64,000 nt of DNA from NCBI GenBank assembly GCA_022041995.1, contig CP074390.1, positions 496,001-560,000 on the forward strand. The letters are read 5' to 3'. Of the stretch, positions 13,549 to 22,051 are shown piece by piece (the first letter of the stretch is position 1; each line of letters opens with the position of its first letter). Origin of the DNA: Cupriavidus necator (GTDB lineage Bacteria; Pseudomonadota; Gammaproteobacteria; Burkholderiales; Burkholderiaceae). The notes under the pieces were generated by a model, which was given only the letters and a program-made list of their open reading frames with translations, did no database searches and had not been told where the DNA came from. The position numbers were made by a program, and so were the translations under genes.

Positions 13549-13581
13549 ACCCCAACTCTCTGAATGACCAAGGAACGCATC

Positions 13582-14001
13582 ATGACCCGTATCGAAAAAG
13601 TGCTGTACACCGGCAAAGTCCACATCACCTCAGGCGGACGCGACGGCCAAGCCCATAGCGATGACGGCCGGCTGAACCTTCAACTGTCCTCGCCGGGCAC
13701 CAAAGGCCCGGGCACGAACCCGGAGCAATTGCTCGCAGCGGGATGGTCGGCGTGCTTTATTGGCGCGATCGGGCTGGCCGCCGGCAAGATGAAAGTGAAG
13801 CTGCCGGCCGAGCTTTCGGTCGACGCCGAAGTTGATCTGGGCAGCGCTGGCGAGGCCTATTTGCTGCAGGCCCGGCTCAATGTCCACATCCCCGGCATCG
13901 AACCTGAAGTGGCCCAGGCACTGGTGGATACCGCGCACCGGACCTGCCCGTACTCGAAGGCCCTGCACGGCAGCATCCACGTCGAAACCAAGCTGGTCTG
14001 A
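13582..14001 (+). CDS. ohr: Organic hydroperoxide resistance protein (Ohr/OsmC family)
   Basis: 139-residue thiol peroxidase that reduces organic hydroperoxides in the cytoplasm. It has the Ohr pattern: peroxidatic Cys C58 in GWSACFIGAIG, resolving Cys C122 in RTCPYSKA, and Arg R20 in the N-terminal loop. Length matches Ohr rather than OsmC. The start at 13582 is chosen because AAGGAA lies just ahead; an earlier ATG at 13564 would include that ribosome site in the coding region. A hairpin terminator follows at 14011-14040. No OhrR (MarR) gene is adjacent. Confidence 0.93.
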   Translation: MTRIEKVLYTGKVHITSGGRDGQAHSDDGRLNLQLSSPGTKGPGTNPEQLLAAGWSACFIGAIGLAAGKMKVKLPAELSVDAEVDLGSAGEAYLLQARLNVHIPGIEPEVAQALVDTAHRTCPYSKALHGSIHVETKLV

Positions 14002-14159: not shown

Positions 14160-14173
14160 TGAAACTGGTTTCA
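14160..14173. promoter_or_regulatory. PtxS-type operator upstream of ptxS
   Basis: TGAAACTGGTTTCA, one mismatched pair from the palindrome TGAAACCGGTTTCA known as the PtxS operator in Pseudomonas. It lies 16 bp before the ptxS start and just after a CATAAT -10-like box (14152-14157), as expected for autorepression. Confidence 0.8.
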
Positions 14174-14189
14174 TCAAGACCCGAACGCT

Positions 14190-15245
14190 ATGCCGCGCCC
14201 TGTTACCCGACCTGTGTCCGACCTGAAACCCGCAGAGAAACTCACCATCCAGGACGTTGCCGACTATGCGGGCGTCTCCAAGGCAACCGTGTCGCGCTAC
14301 CTGAACCGCGGCGGCGAGCAGTTGTCCGCGGACGTAGAGGCGCGCGTGGCCGCGGCCATCCGCGCGCTCGGCTATAGCCCCAGCCCGATGGCGCAGGGGC
14401 TCAAGCGCGGCAAGTCGCGCCTGATCGGGCTGGTGGTCGCGGATGTCTCTAATTCGTTCTCGGTGGCCGTGCTGCGCGGCGTTGAGAAGGCCTGTCGCGA
14501 CGCCGGCTATATGGTGATGCTGTTCAACCTCGGCAATGACGAGCAGCTTGAGCGCGAGGCCATTCGCTCGCTGTCGGCCTACCGGGTCGAGGGCTTTATC
14601 CTGCACACGCTGGGCCACGATGCCGGCGCCCTGGCCGATGCGGCGCAGTTGGGCAAGCCCGTGGTACTGGTCGACCGCAAAGTCGGCGATGCCGAAGTCG
14701 ACCTGGTGGCCCTGGACAACCTGACAGCCGTGCAGGAAGCCGCCGGCCACCTGGTCGAAGCCGGCTATCGGCACCTGCTGTTCATCAGCGAGCCGATCAA
14801 GGCTATCAGCTCGCGCAACGAGCGGGCGCGCGCGTTCCAGGCCTTTGTCGCCGAACACGCGGACACGGTTGACGGGACCGTTTTTGAAGCCCAGAGGGGT
14901 GATGACGATGCCCTGGATGAAGCGCTCCGCGCCCTGCGCCGTGGCGCCGGACAGGCACCCGTTGCCGTGCTGGCGGCCAACGCCGTGATCTCGCTGCGCG
15001 TGGCCGCGTCAGCCGCCAGACTGGGGTGGCAACTTGGCGCCGACCTGGGCCTGATCGGTTTCGATGATCCGGAATGGGCTGCATTGGTTGGTCCTGGCCT
15101 CAGCGCCATTTCCCAGCCCACCGACGATATCGGGCGCGTCGCCACCAACTGCCTGATCGAGCGCCTGCAAGGCACGCAACTGCCGCCGCGCCGGGTGCTG
15201 TTGCCCGGCACCCTGGTCACGCGCGGATCCACCCGCCGAGCCTGA
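14190..15245 (+). CDS. ptxS: LacI-family repressor PtxS (2-ketogluconate-responsive)
   Basis: 351-residue LacI/GalR regulator. The helix-turn-helix TIQDVADYAGVSKATVSRYL lies at about residues 19-38, the hinge at PSPMAQGLKRGKS, and the effector domain follows (GLVVADVSNSFSVAVLRGVEKA; later GLIGFDDPEWAALVGPGLSAISQP). PtxS of Pseudomonas represses the kgu genes and itself and is released by 2-ketogluconate. The assignment rests on the fold, the location just ahead of kguE/kguK/kguD homologues, and three copies of the PtxS operator sequence (14160, 15395, 15416) flanking this gene. The effector is inferred from the family. Confidence 0.88.
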   Translation: MPRPVTRPVSDLKPAEKLTIQDVADYAGVSKATVSRYLNRGGEQLSADVEARVAAAIRALGYSPSPMAQGLKRGKSRLIGLVVADVSNSFSVAVLRGVEKACRDAGYMVMLFNLGNDEQLEREAIRSLSAYRVEGFILHTLGHDAGALADAAQLGKPVVLVDRKVGDAEVDLVALDNLTAVQEAAGHLVEAGYRHLLFISEPIKAISSRNERARAFQAFVAEHADTVDGTVFEAQRGDDDALDEALRALRRGAGQAPVAVLAANAVISLRVAASAARLGWQLGADLGLIGFDDPEWAALVGPGLSAISQPTDDIGRVATNCLIERLQGTQLPPRRVLLPGTLVTRGSTRRA

Positions 15246-15394
15246 CTGCCGAGCCCTTCCCCACCGGCGTCCGCCGTGCCCGCCTGATCCACGGCTGCAC
15301 CCGCTTCGCACGGCCAGCGGGTGCATGACGTTCCGGCTTCCGCATCCGCCCAAACTCGCTTCTTGCCCGTAAGGGTTTCCACTGCTGGATCTCT

Positions 15395-15429
15395 GAAACC
15401 GGTTTCCTATAATCCTGAAACCGGTTTCA
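15395..15429 (+). promoter_or_regulatory. kgu operon promoter bracketed by two PtxS operators
   Basis: GAAACCGGTTTC at 15395-15406 and the perfect TGAAACCGGTTTCA at 15416-15429, with centres about 22 bp apart (two helical turns, same DNA face). Between them is a consensus TATAAT (15408-15413), so bound repressor would cover both sides of the -10 box. No strong -35 is seen (CTGGAT at 15385-15390 has 17-bp spacing). The operon start codon follows at 15492. Confidence 0.85.
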
Positions 15430-15491
15430 AGACGGTGCTTGCCGAACGCTGCGACGCCAGCGACACACCCATATACGTGCAGGAGACATTG

Positions 15492-16295
15492 ATGAACGTC
15501 CAACCCTTGTTGCGCCGCGTAGCCGCGCCCGTGCTGACTCTGCTGGTCCTGGCCAGCGCCGCTTTCACCGCCCAGGCGCAGACCGTCGCCGAGATCGTCA
15601 AGAAGGGCAAGGTCACCATTGGCGTGGTGACCGGTGCCCCGCCCTTCGGCACCACCGACGCCACCGGCAAACCCGCCGGCTATGACGTCGACGTGGCCAA
15701 CCTGCTGGGCAAGTACCTGGGCCTGCCGGTCGATATCGTTCCGCTCACCTCGCCCAGCCGGATTCCGGCGCTGGAGGCCGGCAAGGTCGATTTCCTGGTC
15801 GCGACGCTGGCGCCGACGCCAGAGCGGGCGCGGGCCATCATGTTCAGCGCGCCATATAGCGCGTTCGAGCTGACCATCTTTGCGCCCACCGCTGCCAGGT
15901 ACGCCAGGCTGACGGAACTCGGCAAGAAGAAGGTGGGCGTGACGCGCGGCACCACGCAGGACTCCGCGCTGACCCGGCTCGCCGTGCCCGGCATGAATAT
16001 CGTCCGCTTCGAGGACGATGCCACCTGCGCGCAGGCGCTGATCAGCAATCAGGTCGAGGCCATTGCCCTGCCCAACACCACCGGCAACGAGATCATGAAG
16101 GCACGCGGCGCCGGCAAGTTCGACGCCAAGTTCGCGTTCTCGGTGCAGCCGAATTCGATGGCCGTGCGCCGCGACGCCTTCGAACTGCGCCAGTGGCTCA
16201 ACACCACCATCGCCTACGTCAAGCTCAATGGCGAACTCGACGCCATAGCGCAGAAGTGGACCGGCAAGGCGCTGCCCGCGCTGCAAGCGTTCTGA
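15492..16295 (+). CDS. ABC transporter substrate-binding protein, family 3 (kgu locus)
   Basis: 267-residue periplasmic binding protein of the polar amino acid/opine family. Signal peptide MNVQPLLRRVAAPVLTLLVL with cleavage near AQA-Q, then GKVTIGVVTGAPPFGTTDATGKPAGYDVDVAN, the family-3 start, and the usual ALEAGKVDFLVATLAPTPER region. AGGAGA lies upstream of the chosen ATG; an extension further upstream would cover the PtxS operators. It is the first gene of the PtxS-controlled operon. Family precedent suggests amino acids, but the context points to 2-ketogluconate or a related sugar acid as ligand; this is inference. Confidence 0.9.
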   Translation: MNVQPLLRRVAAPVLTLLVLASAAFTAQAQTVAEIVKKGKVTIGVVTGAPPFGTTDATGKPAGYDVDVANLLGKYLGLPVDIVPLTSPSRIPALEAGKVDFLVATLAPTPERARAIMFSAPYSAFELTIFAPTAARYARLTELGKKKVGVTRGTTQDSALTRLAVPGMNIVRFEDDATCAQALISNQVEAIALPNTTGNEIMKARGAGKFDAKFAFSVQPNSMAVRRDAFELRQWLNTTIAYVKLNGELDAIAQKWTGKALPALQAF

Positions 16296-16349
16296 ACCAG
16301 GCCGACTGAGGTTGCGCGCCGGCGCCAGCCGGCGTGCCAGGAGACCCGC

Positions 16350-17108
16350 ATGCACTACCAATTCGAATGGACGCCGGTGCTGTCGCAGCTGGACCGCTTC
16401 GCGGAAGGCGCGGCGATGACGCTGGCGCTCAGCTTCGGCTCGATCCTGCTTGGCACCGTGGTCGGCACCGCCGGCGCGATTGCCGCCGCTTTTGGCGGGC
16501 CCTGGCTACAGCGCGCCACCAGGGCATACGTCGAAGCCATCCGCAACACGCCCTTCCTGATCCAGCTCTTCATCATCTTCTTCGGCTTGCCGACCGTGGG
16601 CCTGCAGATCGATGCCGTCACCGCCGCTGTGATTGCGATGACCGTCAATCTCGGCGCCTACTCGACGGAAATCATCCGGGCGGGCCTGCAGGCGGTGCAC
16701 CGTTCGCAGCTTGAAGCCGCCGCCGCGCTGGGCATGACACGCTGGCAACTGATCCGCCACGTCGCGCTGGTGCCGGCCTTCGAGAAGGTCTATCCGGCCC
16801 TGACCAGCCAGTTCACGCTGATGATGCTGACCTCGAGCGTGGTGTCGACGATCTCGGTGGAAGAGCTGACGGCGGTCGCCAGCCAGGTCGATTCGCAGAC
16901 CTTCCGCACCTTCGAGAGCTACATCCTCGTCATGTTCATCTATATCGGCCTGGCACTGCTGCTGCGCGCCATGTTCGCCCTGATCGGCAATCTGGTATTC
17001 AAGCGGCGCCGCGTGGTGGCGCGCGCTCGAAAGCTGGCCCGCACGGCCCGGCTCGTGCCGCCGGCGCAAACGGAACTCACGGCCGCGGTTGCAGGGAGCG
17101 CGAAATGA
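16350..17108 (+). CDS. Amino-acid-type ABC transporter permease (HisM/GlnP family)
   Basis: 252-residue inner-membrane permease of the PAAT type with about five membrane segments and the HisM-type signature YVEAIRNTPFLIQLFIIFFG. The cytoplasmic coupling (EAA) loop is EAAAALGMTRWQLIRHVALVPAF. The basic C-terminal tail of about 45 residues (RRRVVARARKLAR) is longer than usual. Its stop overlaps the next permease start as ATGA. Heterodimer with the product of 17105 is inferred. Confidence 0.92.
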   Translation: MHYQFEWTPVLSQLDRFAEGAAMTLALSFGSILLGTVVGTAGAIAAAFGGPWLQRATRAYVEAIRNTPFLIQLFIIFFGLPTVGLQIDAVTAAVIAMTVNLGAYSTEIIRAGLQAVHRSQLEAAAALGMTRWQLIRHVALVPAFEKVYPALTSQFTLMMLTSSVVSTISVEELTAVASQVDSQTFRTFESYILVMFIYIGLALLLRAMFALIGNLVFKRRRVVARARKLARTARLVPPAQTELTAAVAGSAK

Positions 17109-17741
17109 TCACCGAGTTCTCCTGGAATCATCTTGAAATCCTGCTGCTGGCGGCACGCTGGACACTGTGGGTAACCTTGCTCGCCTTCGTCGGCGGCACG
17201 TTCGCCGGTTTCCTGGTGGCGCTGGCGCGTACCTCCAGAAGCCCGCTGCTGCGCCTTGCCAGCACGCTCTATATCCAGGTCGTGCAAGGGACACCGGTGC
17301 TGATCGTGCTGTTCCTGAGCTACTACGGACTCTCCGTGCTCGGGCTCAAGCTGTCGCCGATGGTCGCCGCCATGCTGGCGATGTCGATCTACGCCAGTGC
17401 CTATCTTGGCGAGATCTGGCGCGGCTGCATCGAGGCCGTGCCCCAGGGGCAGTGGGAAGCCAGCGAAGCGCTCGCCCTCACCCGCTGGCAGCAACTGCGC
17501 TTTGTGGTGCTGCCGCAGGCCGTCAGGCTGGCCTTGCCGCCCACGGTGGGGTTCTCGGTCCAGCTGGTCAAGAATACCTCGATCACTTCCATCATCGGCG
17601 TCATCGAACTGACCCGCGCCGGCCAACTGATCAACAACGCGACCTTCCAGCCCTTCGCGGTCTTCGTCGTCGTCGCGCTTATCTACTTCGCGCTCTGCTT
17701 CCCGCTGTCGGCGGCGGCCCGGCGCATGGAAAGGAGGCTCC

Positions 17742-17755
<14 letters not shown>
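17105..17755 (+). CDS. Amino-acid-type ABC transporter permease (HisQ/GlnP family)
   Basis: 216-residue permease, the second membrane subunit. It has the family motif TLYIQVVQGTPVLIVLFLSYYG and the coupling loop EASEALALTRWQQLRFVVLPQAV. It is translationally coupled to both neighbours: a 4-base overlap upstream and a 14-base overlap with the ATPase gene, whose ribosome site AGGAGG lies inside this gene's end. Confidence 0.92.
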
Positions 17756-18472
<717 letters not shown>

Positions 18473-18476
<4 letters not shown>

Positions 18477-19261
18477 GCCAGTGGCAAGCAGATGGTTCTT
18501 TGCGCCCGCCGGTGCTGATCTCGCTGACGGCCTATGGCGCCGACCTCGCCCTGCGCGACGGACAGGCTGCGCTGGCACGGATTGCCGCGGCCGCAGGCGC
18601 GGACGGCGTCGAGTTCCGCGGCGAACTCCAGCGCGGGCACAAGGATGAAGTCATTGAACAGCGCGAGGCCGCCGGGCAGCATGGACTGAGCGTGATCTGG
18701 TCCAGCCCGGAAGGCCTGTGGAATGATGCCGGCACCCTCGACGCCGCCGCGCTCGACCGTGCCTTCACGACCGCGCTGGCGCTCAATGCGACCCGGGTCA
18801 AGATGTCGCTTGGCGGCTATCGGGAAGGCACGGCGCTGGAAGCACTGCTCCCGTGGCTGCGGCACGACGGCATCGAACTCGTCGTGGAAAACGACCAGAC
18901 TCCCCAAGCCGGCACCGTGCCGCCGCTGCGCGATTTCTTCGCGCGTACCAGGGCGCTCGGCAAGACCGTGCCGATGACCTTCGACATGGGCAACTGGCAC
19001 TGGACCGGCGAAGACCCGCTCGACGCCGCGCAGATCCTCGGCGCCAACGTCGGCTACGTGCACTGCAAAGGCGTGCAGCGCACGCCCGCCAAATGGATCG
19101 CGGTGCCGCTTGACCAGTCGGCGGCGCCATGGCGCAGCATCTTGCGCCGCCTGCCCACGCAGGTTGCGCGTGCGATCGAATTTCCGCTGCAAGGCGACGA
19201 CCTGGTGCAGGTCACGCGCCGGCATGTCGAACTGCTGCGTTCGGTGGAGGTCCCCGCATGA
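18473..19261 (+). CDS. kguE: KguE-like sugar phosphate isomerase/epimerase
   Basis: 262-residue TIM-barrel protein of the AP-endonuclease-2/xylose-isomerase fold. The start SLTAYGADLALRDGQ and GADGVEFRGEL match the KguE pattern I know from Pseudomonas kgu operons. Putative metal/active-site residues are Glu in VVENDQTP, Asp in MTFDMGNWHW, His in GYVHCKGVQ and Glu in AIEFPLQG. The enzyme step of KguE is not well established; it is needed for 2-ketogluconate use in pseudomonads. It overlaps both neighbours by four bases. Confidence 0.85.
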
Positions 19262-20202
19262 GCACCGATCTTGACGTGGTCACCCTGGGCGAGGCGATGC
19301 TGATGCTGGTCGCCGGCGAAGCCGGGCCGCTCGAAGGCGCGCAGACCTTCCACAAGCGCACCGCCGGTGCCGAGACCAACGTGGCCATCGGCCTGTCGCG
19401 CCTGGGCCTGAAGGTCGGATGGGCCAGCCGGCTGGGCGACGACTCGATGGCGCGCTACCTGCTCGGTGAAATGCAGCGCGAAGGCGTGGATTGCAGCCAG
19501 GTGGTGTGCGAGCCCGGCGAGCGCACCGGTTTCCAGTTCAAGGGCCGGGTCGATGACGGCAGCGATCCGCCCGTCGAATACCACCGCCGCGGCTCGGCGG
19601 CGAGCCGCATGCACCCGGAACACCTGGACGACCAGTGGCTGCGGCGCTCGCGGCACCTGCACGTCACCGGCGTGTTCCCCGCGCTGGCCGCAGGCACCCA
19701 GGCCGCCACGCGCCAGGCCATCGCCACCATGCGCACTGCCGGCCGCACGATCTCGTTCGATCCCAACCTGCGGCCCACGCTGTGGGCCACGCCCGAGTTG
19801 ATGCGGGAGACGCTGAACGACCTCGCGCGGCAGTGCGACTGGGTGCTGCCCGGCATCGAAGAGGGCCGCTTCCTCACCGGCCATGCCGAGCCGGAACGCA
19901 TTGCCGCCTTCTACCGAGCCCGCGGCGCCAGGCTGGTGGTGGTGAAGCTTGGTGCCGACGGCGCCTATTTCGATGGCGAAAGCGGCACCGGCCATGTCGA
20001 GGCATTCAGCGTCGAGCGTGTCGTCGACACCGTTGGCGCCGGCGATGGCTTTGCCGTGGGCGTGATCAGCGCGCTGCTGGAGGGCCGGCCGGTGAGCGAC
20101 GCCGTCCGCCGCGGCGCATGGATCGGCGCGCGGGCGGTGCAGGTGCGGGGCGATACTGAAGGCCTGCCGACCCATGCCCAGCTGGCGGCCGCCAGTTTGT
20201 GA
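19258..20202 (+). CDS. kguK: PfkB-family 2-ketogluconate kinase
   Basis: 314-residue ribokinase-fold sugar kinase, likely phosphorylating 2-ketogluconate to 2-keto-6-phosphogluconate. It begins VVTLGEAMLMLVAGEAGPLE, has FHKRTAGAETNVAIGLSRLG (PfkB signature 1), the substrate region RRGSAASRMHPEHL, RTISFDPNLRPTLW, and the catalytic Asp in DTVGAGDGFAVG (signature 2). KDG kinases are close relatives, so the ring position is decided here by the kgu context. The ATG overlaps the kguE stop. Confidence 0.87.
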   Translation: MSTDLDVVTLGEAMLMLVAGEAGPLEGAQTFHKRTAGAETNVAIGLSRLGLKVGWASRLGDDSMARYLLGEMQREGVDCSQVVCEPGERTGFQFKGRVDDGSDPPVEYHRRGSAASRMHPEHLDDQWLRRSRHLHVTGVFPALAAGTQAATRQAIATMRTAGRTISFDPNLRPTLWATPELMRETLNDLARQCDWVLPGIEEGRFLTGHAEPERIAAFYRARGARLVVVKLGADGAYFDGESGTGHVEAFSVERVVDTVGAGDGFAVGVISALLEGRPVSDAVRRGAWIGARAVQVRGDTEGLPTHAQLAAASL

Positions 20203-20222
20203 AGCCACAGCAAGGATTTGCC

Positions 20223-21212
20223 ATGCGCAAGAATGTACTGGTGTTCCGCCCGATTCCTGAGGACCTGCTCGCCAGGATCGCGTCGGAACATGACGTGATC
20301 GTGGCCGACCCGCGCCAGCCGGCACAACGGCCTGCCTTCCGCGCCGCACTGTCGAAAGCCCACGGCCTGATCGGCTCCAGCGTGAAGCTGGGCGCGGCGG
20401 AACTGGCCGAAGCGGGCCAGTTGGAGGTGATCTCGAGTATTTCGGTGGGCGTCGACAACTACGACCTCCCCTGCCTGCACCGGCGTGGCATCACCCTGTG
20501 CCACACGCCCGGCGTACTCACCGAGACCACCGCCGACACCATCTTCGCGCTCATCATGGCCACCAGCCGCCGCCTGGTCGAGCTGGCGGCCCATGTGCGC
20601 GAAGGCCGCTGGACCGCCAACATCGGAGAGGGCCTGTTCGGCTGGGACGTGCACGGCAAGACCCTGGCGATCCTGGGCTTCGGGCGCATCGGCCAGGCCG
20701 TGGCGCGACGCGCCGCGCTCGGCTTCGGCATGGAGGTGCTCTACGTCAACGAGACCGCAGCGGCACCGCCCGACCTGGCGGGACGCACCACCCGCACGGA
20801 TCTCGACGATGCCTTGCTGCGCGCCGATATCGTCGCCGTGACGCTGCCCCTGACCGACAGCACGCGCGGCCTGATGGGCCTGCGCGAGTTCGCGCTGATG
20901 AAGCCGGGCGCCATCTTTGTCAATGGCGCGCGCGGCCAGATCGTGCAGGAAGACGCGCTGCTCGCGGCGCTCGAGAGCGGACACCTGCGCGCCGCCGGGC
21001 TGGACGTCTTCGCCACCGAGCCCCTGCCTCAGGATTCGCCGCTGCGCAGCCATCCCAAGGTGACAGCCCTGCCCCATATCGGCTCGGCCACGCATGAGAC
21101 CCGGCGTGCCATGGCCGAACTCGCCACGCGCAACCTGCTGGACGCGCTCGCCGGGCGGCAGCCGGCTGCGCGCTTCGACCTGGCGGCCTTTGCCGCCCAG
21201 GCAGCCGCCTGA
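20223..21212 (+). CDS. kguD: D-isomer 2-hydroxyacid dehydrogenase, KguD-like (2-ketogluconate-6-P reductase)
   Basis: 329-residue NAD(P)H-dependent dehydrogenase. ISSISVGVDNYDL and NTPG-equivalent HTPGVLTETTADT are the GhrB/KguD pattern; the cofactor loop is GFGRIGQAVARRAALGFGMEV; the catalytic triad is Arg in NGARGQIV, Glu in FATEPLPQ and His in LPHIGSATHE. In kgu metabolism it reduces 2-keto-6-phosphogluconate to 6-phosphogluconate, feeding the Entner-Doudoroff route. AAGGA sits ahead of the ATG at 20223; a GTG at 20199 overlapping the kguK stop is an alternative start. Confidence 0.86.
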   Translation: MRKNVLVFRPIPEDLLARIASEHDVIVADPRQPAQRPAFRAALSKAHGLIGSSVKLGAAELAEAGQLEVISSISVGVDNYDLPCLHRRGITLCHTPGVLTETTADTIFALIMATSRRLVELAAHVREGRWTANIGEGLFGWDVHGKTLAILGFGRIGQAVARRAALGFGMEVLYVNETAAAPPDLAGRTTRTDLDDALLRADIVAVTLPLTDSTRGLMGLREFALMKPGAIFVNGARGQIVQEDALLAALESGHLRAAGLDVFATEPLPQDSPLRSHPKVTALPHIGSATHETRRAMAELATRNLLDALAGRQPAARFDLAAFAAQAAA

Positions 21213-21235
21213 CTCCCCCGCAAGGACAACCCGCA

Positions 21236-22051
21236 ATGCCCGGTTCCATTCCCACGCTGTGCGGCTCGATCATGGGCGAGCCCATCACCTTCAATGTGCG
21301 CATCCACAATGCCGCCTATCGGGCGCTCGGGATCGACTACACCTTTGTGTGCTTCGGGGTGCAGGACGTGCCCGGCGCCGTGCAATCGATCCGCGCGCTC
21401 GGCGTGCGTGGCATGAATGTCTCGATGCCGCACAAGCAGGCGGTGATCCCGCATCTCGACCATCTCGACAGGACCGCCCGCGCCATCGGCGCGGTCAACA
21501 CCATCAACAATATCGATGGCGTGCTGACCGGCTACAACACCGATTGCATCGGCGCCGTGCGGGCGTTCGGGGAGGTGACGGAAGTGGCCGGCAAGCGCAT
21601 TGCGCTGCTGGGCGCGGGCGGCGCGGCGCGGGCGATGGCCTATGGCCTGCGCGAGGCCGGCGCCAGCGTGACCGTGTTCAACCGCACCGCGGCGCGTGGC
21701 GAAGAACTGGCCGGCTCGCTTGGCCTGCGCTTTGGCGGCGGGCTGACGGACTTCCGCGCGGCGGACTTCGACATGCTCGCCAACGCGACCGCCGCCGGCT
21801 TTCGCGCTCCCGATGTCAACCCGGTCCCCGGACAGCTCGCCGCACACCTGATCGTCATGGACGCTGCCTTCATCCCGGTCAGGAGCAAGCTGATCCGGGA
21901 TGCCGCCGCGCTGGGCTGCCGTACCATCGACGGCACGCGCATGATGCTGCACCAGGCCTGCGCCCAGGTCGAGTTCTACACCGGCTGCGCACGCGCGCCG
22001 ATCGAGGCAATGGAAGCGGCGCTGCTTGAGGAGATCGCTCGCCTGTCTTGA
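21236..22051 (+). CDS. Shikimate dehydrogenase family protein (AroE-like) in kgu operon
   Basis: 271-residue AroE-superfamily protein. It has the substrate-domain start GSIMGEPITFNVRIHNAAY, the catalytic Lys in MNVSMPHKQAV (about residue 65), the Asp in GYNTDCIGAV (about 103), the Rossmann loop GAGGAARAMAYGL and the NRTAARG NADP-preferring motif. The first motif departs from the SxxPxxHN of biosynthetic AroE (GEPITFNVRIHN), so a shikimate/quinate-like or other hydroxyacid substrate is more likely. It is the last gene of the PtxS-controlled operon, 23 bp after kguD. Its role there is unknown. Confidence 0.85.
   Translation: MPGSIPTLCGSIMGEPITFNVRIHNAAYRALGIDYTFVCFGVQDVPGAVQSIRALGVRGMNVSMPHKQAVIPHLDHLDRTARAIGAVNTINNIDGVLTGYNTDCIGAVRAFGEVTEVAGKRIALLGAGGAARAMAYGLREAGASVTVFNRTAARGEELAGSLGLRFGGGLTDFRAADFDMLANATAAGFRAPDVNPVPGQLAAHLIVMDAAFIPVRSKLIRDAAALGCRTIDGTRMMLHQACAQVEFYTGCARAPIEAMEAALLEEIARLS

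What the first reader, a model, noticed from the sequence alone, without database searches (positions are those of the whole stretch)
14160..22051. 2-ketogluconate (kgu) locus with an amino-acid-type ABC importer in place of KguT
PtxS, KguE, KguK and KguD homologues are present, and the operators TGAAACTGGTTTCA and TGAAACCGGTTTCA equal the PtxS site known from Pseudomonas. The expected MFS permease KguT is missing; four genes of a polar-amino-acid-type ABC importer are translationally linked to kguE instead. This implies that a family-3 binding protein, normally an amino acid receptor, recognises a sugar acid.
Basis: partly seen in the sequence, partly recalled or inferred. Interest (0 to 1): 0.75.

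Follow-up and report, generated by a model that had tools for sequence, protein, structure and literature searches.

The report
Ketogluconate operon with amino-acid-type importer
In some Cupriavidus soil bacteria and relatives, the genes for eating the sugar acid 2-ketogluconate carry an importer built from amino-acid-transporter parts in place of the usual sugar-acid carrier, and the evidence suggests that this importer has been rebuilt to take up the sugar acid.

Summary
Window 14160-22051 carries ptxS, a four-gene polar-amino-acid-type ABC importer, kguE, kguK, kguD and an aroE-like gene, with three PtxS-type operators, two of them flanking a TATAAT box. Published primers for the assayed 2-ketogluconate kinase of C. 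necator H16 match both ends of this kguK exactly. The genome holds no KguT orthologue: its best MFS hit is 38% identical, against 68-99% for kguT in other kgu loci.

Of 56 kguE-containing loci examined, 35 carry kguT, 17 the ABC importer, 4 neither, none both. The ABC form has two gene orders, and trees of binding protein, permease and ATPase each reject one origin (AU p 0.007 to 1.6e-5), suggesting two captures.

By alignment the binding protein keeps the carboxylate-binding arginine of family-3 receptors but lacks both side chains that hold an alpha-amine (LAO Ser72 and Asp161; here Ala107 and Pro194). Relatives outside kgu loci lack them too. A 53%-identical Xanthobacter relative stands beside idonate/gluconate dehydrogenase-like genes.

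Best reading: the ABC importer takes up 2-ketogluconate, replacing KguT. Ligand binding is not shown. A new variant of a known kind.

The parts
14160..14173 (.). PtxS-type operator TGAAACTGGTTTCA, 16 bp before ptxS start
   Evidence: same site in 9 of the 11 loci L009-L019 (L009-L016, L018; L019 ends in C; none in L017)
14190..15245 (+). ptxS homologue, LacI-family repressor (351 aa)
   Evidence: PF00356 and PF13377; same order in 11 of 11 near loci
15394..15407 (.). PtxS-type operator TGAAACCGGTTTCC, upstream half of a twin site
15408..15413 (+). TATAAT, candidate -10 box between the twin operators (22 bp apart start to start)
   Evidence: TATAAT identical in L009-L016 (8 of 8), L137 and L138; TACACT in L018, TAGAAT in L019; the generic promoter scan did not report a promoter here
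15416..15429 (.). PtxS-type operator TGAAACCGGTTTCA, perfect palindrome
   Evidence: equals the published PtxS palindrome
15492..16295 (+). periplasmic binding protein, SBP_bac_3, 267 aa, signal-like N-terminus (by eye); candidate 2-ketogluconate receptor
   Evidence: PF00497 E 4e-32; pocket residues by alignment; AF2 model mean pLDDT 85
16350..17108 (+). ABC permease 1 (HEQRo 3TM type)
   Evidence: TIGR01726 105 bits, cut-off 42.2
17105..17755 (+). ABC permease 2 (HEQRo 3TM type)
   Evidence: TIGR01726 98.9 bits, cut-off 42.2
17742..18476 (+). ABC ATPase, GlnQ-like
   Evidence: PF00005; NF007027 E 2.1e-84, 282.7 bits, below its cut-off of 379
18473..19261 (+). kguE, xylose-isomerase-like TIM barrel
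   Evidence: PF01261; no NCBIfam match; kguE of kguT-type loci found with it
19258..20202 (+). kguK, PfkB kinase; counterpart of the assayed C. necator H16 2-ketogluconate kinase
   Evidence: PF00294; both H16 kguK primers of PMC6651773 match exactly at 19258 and 20185
20199..21212 (+). kguD, GhrB-type 2-ketoacid reductase (GTG 20199, or ATG 20223)
   Evidence: PF02826/PF00389; GhrB model 332.3 bits, below its cut-off of 492
21236..22051 (+). aroE-like dehydrogenase, last gene of the cluster, role unknown
   Evidence: 188 bits to TIGR00507, below the cut-off of 200.2; another gene of the genome passes it; present in 11 of 11 near loci

Best explanation
This is a PtxS-controlled 2-ketogluconate (2KG) operon in which the usual MFS carrier KguT is replaced by a four-part ABC importer of the polar-amino-acid type. 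Proposed working: external 2KG enters the periplasm; the family-3 binding protein closes on its carboxylate through Arg112 and hands it to the two permeases and the ATPase; KguK phosphorylates it, KguD reduces 2-keto-6-phosphogluconate to 6-phosphogluconate, and the Entner-Doudoroff pathway takes over. Without 2KG, PtxS sits on the twin operators that flank the TATAAT box and shuts the operon; 2KG releases it. Shown here: gene content, operators, absence of KguT orthologues, mutual exclusion in the loci examined, pocket substitutions by alignment, two lineages. Shown by others: the kinase activity of the C. necator H16 KguK, and PtxS/2KG regulation in Pseudomonas. Inferred: the ligand of the binding protein, transport, and repression at this promoter.
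For: The nine-gene order is kept in 11 of 11 loci with SBP identity of 79% or more. Exclusion: of 56 kguE-containing loci, 35 kguT, 17 ABC, 4 neither, 0 both within the stretches held. Eleven of the 17 ABC loci were found with the binding protein as query; the 45 found through kguE split 35, 6, 4, 0. All 23 other genomes of the phylum list are among them and split 19, 2, 2, 0. No KguT orthologue in the genome or, at E 1e-60 or better, in 60 genomes of the genus. A kguT knockout loses 2KG use in P. plecoglossicida (PMC11678583, passages), so an importer is needed. In the genus, binding protein and kguE go together: 8 of 8 genomes with kguE have the binding protein, and 20 of 20 listed without kguE lack it. 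The published H16 kguK primers match exactly. JMP134 lacks the kinase gene and cannot use 2KG, other Cupriavidus can (PMC2842291, passages). Pocket: the Arg77 counterpart is kept, the Ser72 and Asp161 counterparts are Ala107 and Pro194; Arg90 and Arg152 are present in all 25 kgu-linked and related receptors. Xanthobacter relative (53%) beside idnD-like, gluconate-5-dehydrogenase-like, GntR/IdnR-like and GhrB-like genes, none over its model's cut-off. No Gcd over the cut-off and no Gluconate_2-dh3, which fits a scavenger of 2KG made by others.
Against: No binding, uptake or mutant data. The loss of the amine-binding Asp is shared by all ten relatives examined outside kgu loci, two of which stand beside deacylase-like genes (by eye), so it is not a 2KG signature; and OccJ without that Asp still binds arginine at micromolar affinity (PMC5740067). 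The 50 listed closest solved folds are amino-acid receptors or their engineered or ancestral kin, one of them an ancestral cyclohexadienyl dehydratase: no support for a sugar acid. Some of the 33 MFS matches in the genome could carry 2KG without being KguT orthologues. The H16 kinase also accepts other 2-ketoaldonates (PMC6651773, abstract and passages), so the true ligand could be one of these. No TGAAAC-type site was found in ABC loci L017 and L064, and the second lineage has single sites, not twins.
Confidence: 0.85

Rival explanations
1. The importer serves a neighbouring sugar acid rather than 2KG itself (2-keto-gulonate, 2-keto-3-deoxygluconate, gluconate, idonate or 2,5-diketogluconate), which the same enzymes channel into central metabolism.
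For: [quoted passage not shown] The Xanthobacter relative stands beside idonate/gluconate dehydrogenase-like genes. The extra aroE-like gene could act on a further substrate.
Against: KguE, KguK, KguD and the PtxS operator are those of 2KG loci, and the importer takes the place of the 2KG carrier.
Confidence: 0.1
2. The importer is an ordinary amino-acid importer that merely sits in the operon, and 2KG enters by an unidentified MFS or other carrier.
For: Family and nearest solved structures are amino-acid receptors. 33 MFS matches exist in the genome.
Against: Both amine-holding side chains are lost by alignment. No kgu locus examined has both transporters, and the ABC form seems to have been captured twice. 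The best MFS hit (38%) is beside an amidohydrolase-like and a LysR-like gene by eye, and one search found no PtxS-type site on that contig outside the window's locus.
Confidence: 0.04
3. The importer takes up D-glucosaminate, an amino sugar acid for which amino-acid-type importers are known (recalled, from no call).
For: Glucosaminate is chemically between an amino acid and a sugar acid; JMP134 and other Cupriavidus/Ralstonia strains are said to carry a glucosaminate deaminase gene (PMC2842291, passages).
Against: No deaminase among the nine genes of the cluster; loss of the amine-binding pair.
Confidence: 0.01

Closest known systems
kgu operon of Pseudomonas (ptxS / kguE-kguK-kguT-kguD)
   Same: PtxS-type regulator, the same 14-bp palindrome, KguE, KguK, KguD homologues in one apparent operon
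   Different: KguT absent; four ABC importer genes before kguE; twin operators around a TATAAT box; an extra aroE-like gene
Polar amino acid uptake (PAAT-type) ABC importers, SBP_bac_3 receptors such as LAO, HisJ, GlnH
   Same: PF00497 receptor, two HEQRo-type permeases, GlnQ-like ATPase; carboxylate-binding Arg kept
   Different: Ser72 and Asp161 counterparts are Ala and Pro; the counterparts of LAO Tyr14 and Phe52 are Ala49 and Ser87 in the window protein (the second lineage has Phe at 49); operon context of a sugar acid
Opine receptors NocT and OccJ of Agrobacterium
   Same: Family-3 receptors without the Asp161-type amine lock that keep the Arg and bind a non-standard carboxylate ligand (PMC4192606, PMC5740067, passages)
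   Different: Opines are amino-acid derivatives; a sugar acid has no amino group or arginine moiety. OccJ still has the Ser72 counterpart. No close sequence relation was tested

Membership tests
PtxS-kgu 2-ketogluconate system | LacI-family regulator next to kgu genes with TGAAACCGGTTTCA operators | tested here: met
PtxS-kgu 2-ketogluconate system | KguE, KguK and KguD homologues in one apparent operon | tested here: met
   H16 kguK primers match exactly; co-transcription not tested
PtxS-kgu 2-ketogluconate system | MFS permease KguT | tested here: not met
   none in the locus; best in the genome 38%; hits at E 1e-60 or better in 60 genomes of the genus are 31-38%
PtxS-kgu 2-ketogluconate system | 2KG is the effector of the regulator and the imported substrate | not testable with these tools
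   needs binding and uptake assays
PAAT-type ABC importer | SBP_bac_3 receptor, two HEQRo permeases, GlnQ-type ATPase | tested here: met
   (ATPase best model GlnQ, below its equivalog cut-off)
PAAT-type ABC importer | Receptor residues that hold an alpha-amino acid (LAO Arg77 with Ser72 and Asp161) | tested here: not met
   Arg112 kept; Ala107 and Pro194 in place of Ser72 and Asp161 by alignment; residue roles from PMC4192606 and PMC5740067
PAAT-type ABC importer | Transports amino acids or derivatives | not testable with these tools
   no ligand data

The most novel reading that the evidence does not exclude
A branch of the amino-acid-type ABC importers has turned into sugar-acid importers, and at least two separate members of it were captured by kgu operons in place of KguT. 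The branch is marked by the missing alpha-amine lock and two added arginines (Arg90, Arg152) present in all 25 members examined. A third member serves an idonate/gluconate locus in Xanthobacter.
Probability: 0.55. Interest if true: 0.62.

Novelty: new variant of a known kind. Interest (0 to 1): 0.52.

Why it matters
It predicts the ligand of a receptor class that annotation names 'amino acid ABC transporter', names residues to test, and offers the missing 2KG importer of Cupriavidus. If right, sugar-acid users in which KguT cannot be found may have been overlooked, and amino-acid labels on this branch are wrong. The apparent double capture makes a natural experiment: two different receptors in one kguK lineage that would have converged on one ligand.

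Tried and rejected
Considered and rejected: (a) a kguT elsewhere in the genome (none at orthologue level; one search scored at most 29 candidates a genome; context of the best hit seen in L098); (b) further PtxS targets elsewhere in the genome (none above chance); (c) that the locus is peculiar to this genome (its binding protein is in 17 of 60 genomes of the genus, own included, and the cluster in other Burkholderiales); (d) a single origin of the ABC form (AU tests; the rows were grouped by gene neighbourhood, but the tests were run after the tree had been seen); (e) the aroE-like gene as the housekeeping aroE (another gene passes the cut-off; the Ser-x-Ser signature seen in that gene is missing here, while the Lys and Asp of the catalytic pair are present; motif roles recalled).

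Led nowhere: the generic promoter and terminator scan (promoters 1 found against 0.9 expected, terminators 4 against 4.5); plasmid records (200 records with a match, none covering 80% of the query; the ten listed are Rhizobium and Shinella, matched over permease and ATPase; of the two looked at, one has amino acid importer labels and no sugar-acid gene nearby, the other no annotation); literature (PMC9007349 passages: the word ketogluconate does not occur; PMC3003667 passages, unrelated mentions). Alignment A1 had row L063 out of frame and was not used. The VIA-align library was not available.

Rows dropped: the SBP and kguK trees used the window and 14 of 17 ABC loci (L011-L013 left out as near copies), and for kguK 16 of 35 kguT loci. 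The rows L004 and L006 are one and the same gene, so the own-genome amino-acid-type receptors number five, not six. The one search test left these out. The SBP test left out these and L020, L028, L029, L138; its ATPase test left out the ATPases beside them and L024, L025, L026, L029, L138. The permease test left out the permeases beside them, L028 and L138. The survey loci were picked by hand: 20 and G287 and G306 from the 139 other genomes of the family list, and 18 from the 23 other genomes of the phylum list; the remaining 5 of those 23 had been fetched.
Full report
What is there. The window lies in a 9.6-Mb genome whose nearest named relatives at this locus are Cupriavidus. From 14190 to 22051 nine genes run on the + strand: ptxS, family-3 binding protein, two permeases, ATPase, kguE, kguK, kguD, aroE-like. 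From the first permease to kguD, neighbouring genes overlap by 4, 14, 4, 4 and (if GTG 20199 is the start of kguD) 4 bases; the binding-protein gene is 54 bp before the first permease and the aroE-like gene 23 bp after kguD (coordinates).

Operators. TGAAACTGGTTTCA (14160) lies 16 bp before ptxS. TGAAACCGGTTTCC (15394) and TGAAACCGGTTTCA (15416) start 22 bp apart before the binding-protein gene and flank the sequence TATAAT. Six strand matches with up to two mismatches stand against 0.19 expected. In the whole genome the only other place is one 1-mismatch site, when the reversed control pattern finds four strand matches. The twin arrangement with TATAAT is unchanged in L009-L016, L137 and L138 and recognisable in L018 and L019; L017 and L064 gave no such site; L063, L110 and L119, of the second lineage, have no twin site. 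TGAAACCGGTTTCA is the palindrome bound by PtxS in Pseudomonas with 2KG as effector (PMC11678583, start of abstract and passages). A repressor there would cover the -10 box; this is inference, and a consensus scan did not report a promoter at the site.

Identity of the pathway. The two primers with which kguK of C. necator H16 was cloned (PMC6651773, passages) match the window exactly at the first and last bases of this kguK (19258 and 20185). That enzyme was purified and its 2-ketogluconate kinase activity confirmed. Strain JMP134 lacks the kinase gene and cannot use 2KG, in contrast to other Cupriavidus (PMC2842291, passages). In the genus the binding protein occurs in 17 of 60 genomes, own included (E 1e-60 or better). 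In the family sample, all 8 genomes of the genus with kguE have the binding protein, and the 20 listed genomes of the genus without kguE lack it (the list of genomes without a match was cut). The genome has no Gcd-type glucose dehydrogenase over the family cut-off (best 170.6 bits, cut-off 832.65) and no gluconate 2-dehydrogenase subunit 3 (that family rang in only 2 of 14 control genomes). The cell therefore probably uses 2KG made by neighbours; a binding-protein-dependent importer would suit that (inference). A KDPG-aldolase-like gene was seen by eye in L098; the Entner-Doudoroff enzymes were not tested.

KguT is replaced. The MFS permease inside the kgu locus of a family member (L066) finds kguT at 68-99% identity in 34 further kgu loci. 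In the own genome its best match is 38% identical, beside an amidohydrolase-like and a LysR-like gene by eye. Across 60 genomes of the genus, 43 have hits at E 1e-60 or better, all 31-38% identical (which scored at most 29 candidates a genome). I looked at 56 kguE-containing loci besides the window: 35 have kguT, 17 the ABC importer, 4 neither (L065, L078, L120, and L115 whose contig ends), none both within the stretches held. Eleven of the 17 were found with the binding protein as query. In the 45 found through kguE the numbers are 35, 6, 4 and 0; 40 of these were picked by hand, L137 and L138 because they belong to the genus. The least biased part is the phylum list: all 23 genomes with kguE other than the own one were looked at, and they split into 19 kguT, 2 ABC (L063, L119), 2 neither (L078, L120), 0 both.

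Two captures. The ABC form has two arrangements: ptxS, binding protein, permeases, ATPase, kguEKD (window, L009-L019, L137, L138, L064) and permease, permease, binding protein, ATPase, kguEKD (L063, L110, L119; in L119 ptxS stands at the end). The kguK tree puts 14 ABC rows, all except L064, in one starred clade (100/99), and all 15 lie on one weak side (67/33). The transporter parts do not: one origin is rejected for the binding protein (AU p 1.6e-5; 0.007 with L020, L028 and L029 left out), the ATPase (2.8e-4) and the second permease (1.8e-4). The first type groups with a Xanthobacter importer (99/99, 100/99), the second with a Bradyrhizobium one (97/90 and 92/88); a wider grouping of the second type with Methylobacterium and Roseomonas (89/91) did not come back. 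Long branches are in play and the tests followed a first look at the tree, so I read two captures as likely rather than certain.

The pocket. In LAO and HisJ, Arg77 binds the ligand carboxylate while Ser72 and Asp161 hold the alpha-amine; NocT, which lacks the last two, does not bind arginine, probably for that reason (PMC4192606, passages; PMC5740067, passages). Against too strong a reading, OccJ, with Asn for the Asp but with the Ser kept, still binds arginine at micromolar affinity. By alignment the window protein has Arg112, Ala107 and Pro194 at these places. All 15 kgu-linked receptors examined have Arg, Ala, and Pro or Ser. Of five amino-acid-type receptors of the same genome, four keep the Asp and one has Gly (where one gene appears twice, as L004 and L006; their ligands are untested). 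Arg90 and Arg152 are present in all 15 kgu-linked and all 10 related receptors; of the five, one has Arg at position 90 and none at 152. LAO itself was not aligned: its numbering was carried over through AncQR, the five-residue spacing of Ser72 and Arg77, and the Asp column of the own-genome receptors. Against a 2KG-specific reading: the ten relatives outside kgu loci also lack the Asp, and two of them (L021, L028) stand beside genes that look by eye like deacylases. So the substitutions say 'carboxylate without alpha-amine', not '2KG'. The AlphaFold model (mean pLDDT 85, pTM 0.75) matches amino-acid receptors and their engineered or ancestral kin in the 50 rows listed, one of them an ancestral cyclohexadienyl dehydratase. 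No docking was done.

The Xanthobacter relative. In L020 the binding protein (53%), permeases and ATPase (67%) stand beside genes whose best or near-best NCBIfam models are L-idonate 5-dehydrogenase (361 bits, cut-off 469), gluconate 5-dehydrogenase (319 bits, cut-off 408; a general SDR model scores higher, 412.4 against a cut-off of 413), GntR/IdnR-type regulator (278.5 bits, cut-off 400) and glyoxylate reductase or GhrB (212 and 161 bits, cut-offs 455 and 492). None passes its cut-off, so the names are leads, but together they point to a sugar acid. It is the only one of the ten relatives outside kgu loci where I recognised such a setting.

Novelty. Searches of the held open-access library for 2-ketogluconate with PtxS and ABC transporter, kguT/kguE, amino acid ABC transporter or Cupriavidus (20 of 32 papers listed), ABC transporter with binding protein, uptake and Cupriavidus necator and ketogluconate with amino acid ABC transporter (two papers, one read by passages, unrelated; the other, on Salmonella, seen only in the listing) showed no description of such an importer in titles, abstract starts or the passages that I read. 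Most listed papers were not opened. Subscription papers, RegPrecise and mutant-fitness databases were not searchable, so it may have been noted there.

Verdict.

Noticed in passing
window 21236-22051: AroE-like gene kept with the cluster in 11 of 11 near loci but not seen in L063, L064, L110 or L119. It lacks the Ser-x-Ser segment seen in the genome's cut-off-passing AroE but keeps the Lys and Asp pair, so it probably acts on something other than shikimate.
   Followed up: partly
L078 8961-10797, L120 7104-8882: kguE next to kguD without kguK and without either transporter in two genomes of one other family.
   Followed up: no
L137 (G306:C9:228342-229093): kguE reads in two frames in this one genome of the genus, a frameshift or sequencing error; described only.
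   Followed up: no
L021 9776-10786, L028 11873-12892: Two relatives of the importer stand beside similar deacylase-like genes (by eye), hinting at other carboxylate ligands in this branch.
   Followed up: no
window 13564-14001: OsmC-family gene (PF02566) directly upstream of ptxS; no match to it in the near loci L009-L019.
   Followed up: no
L063, L110, L119: Second type of kgu-linked ABC importer with the binding-protein gene after the permeases, in the same kguK clade as the window.
   Followed up: yes
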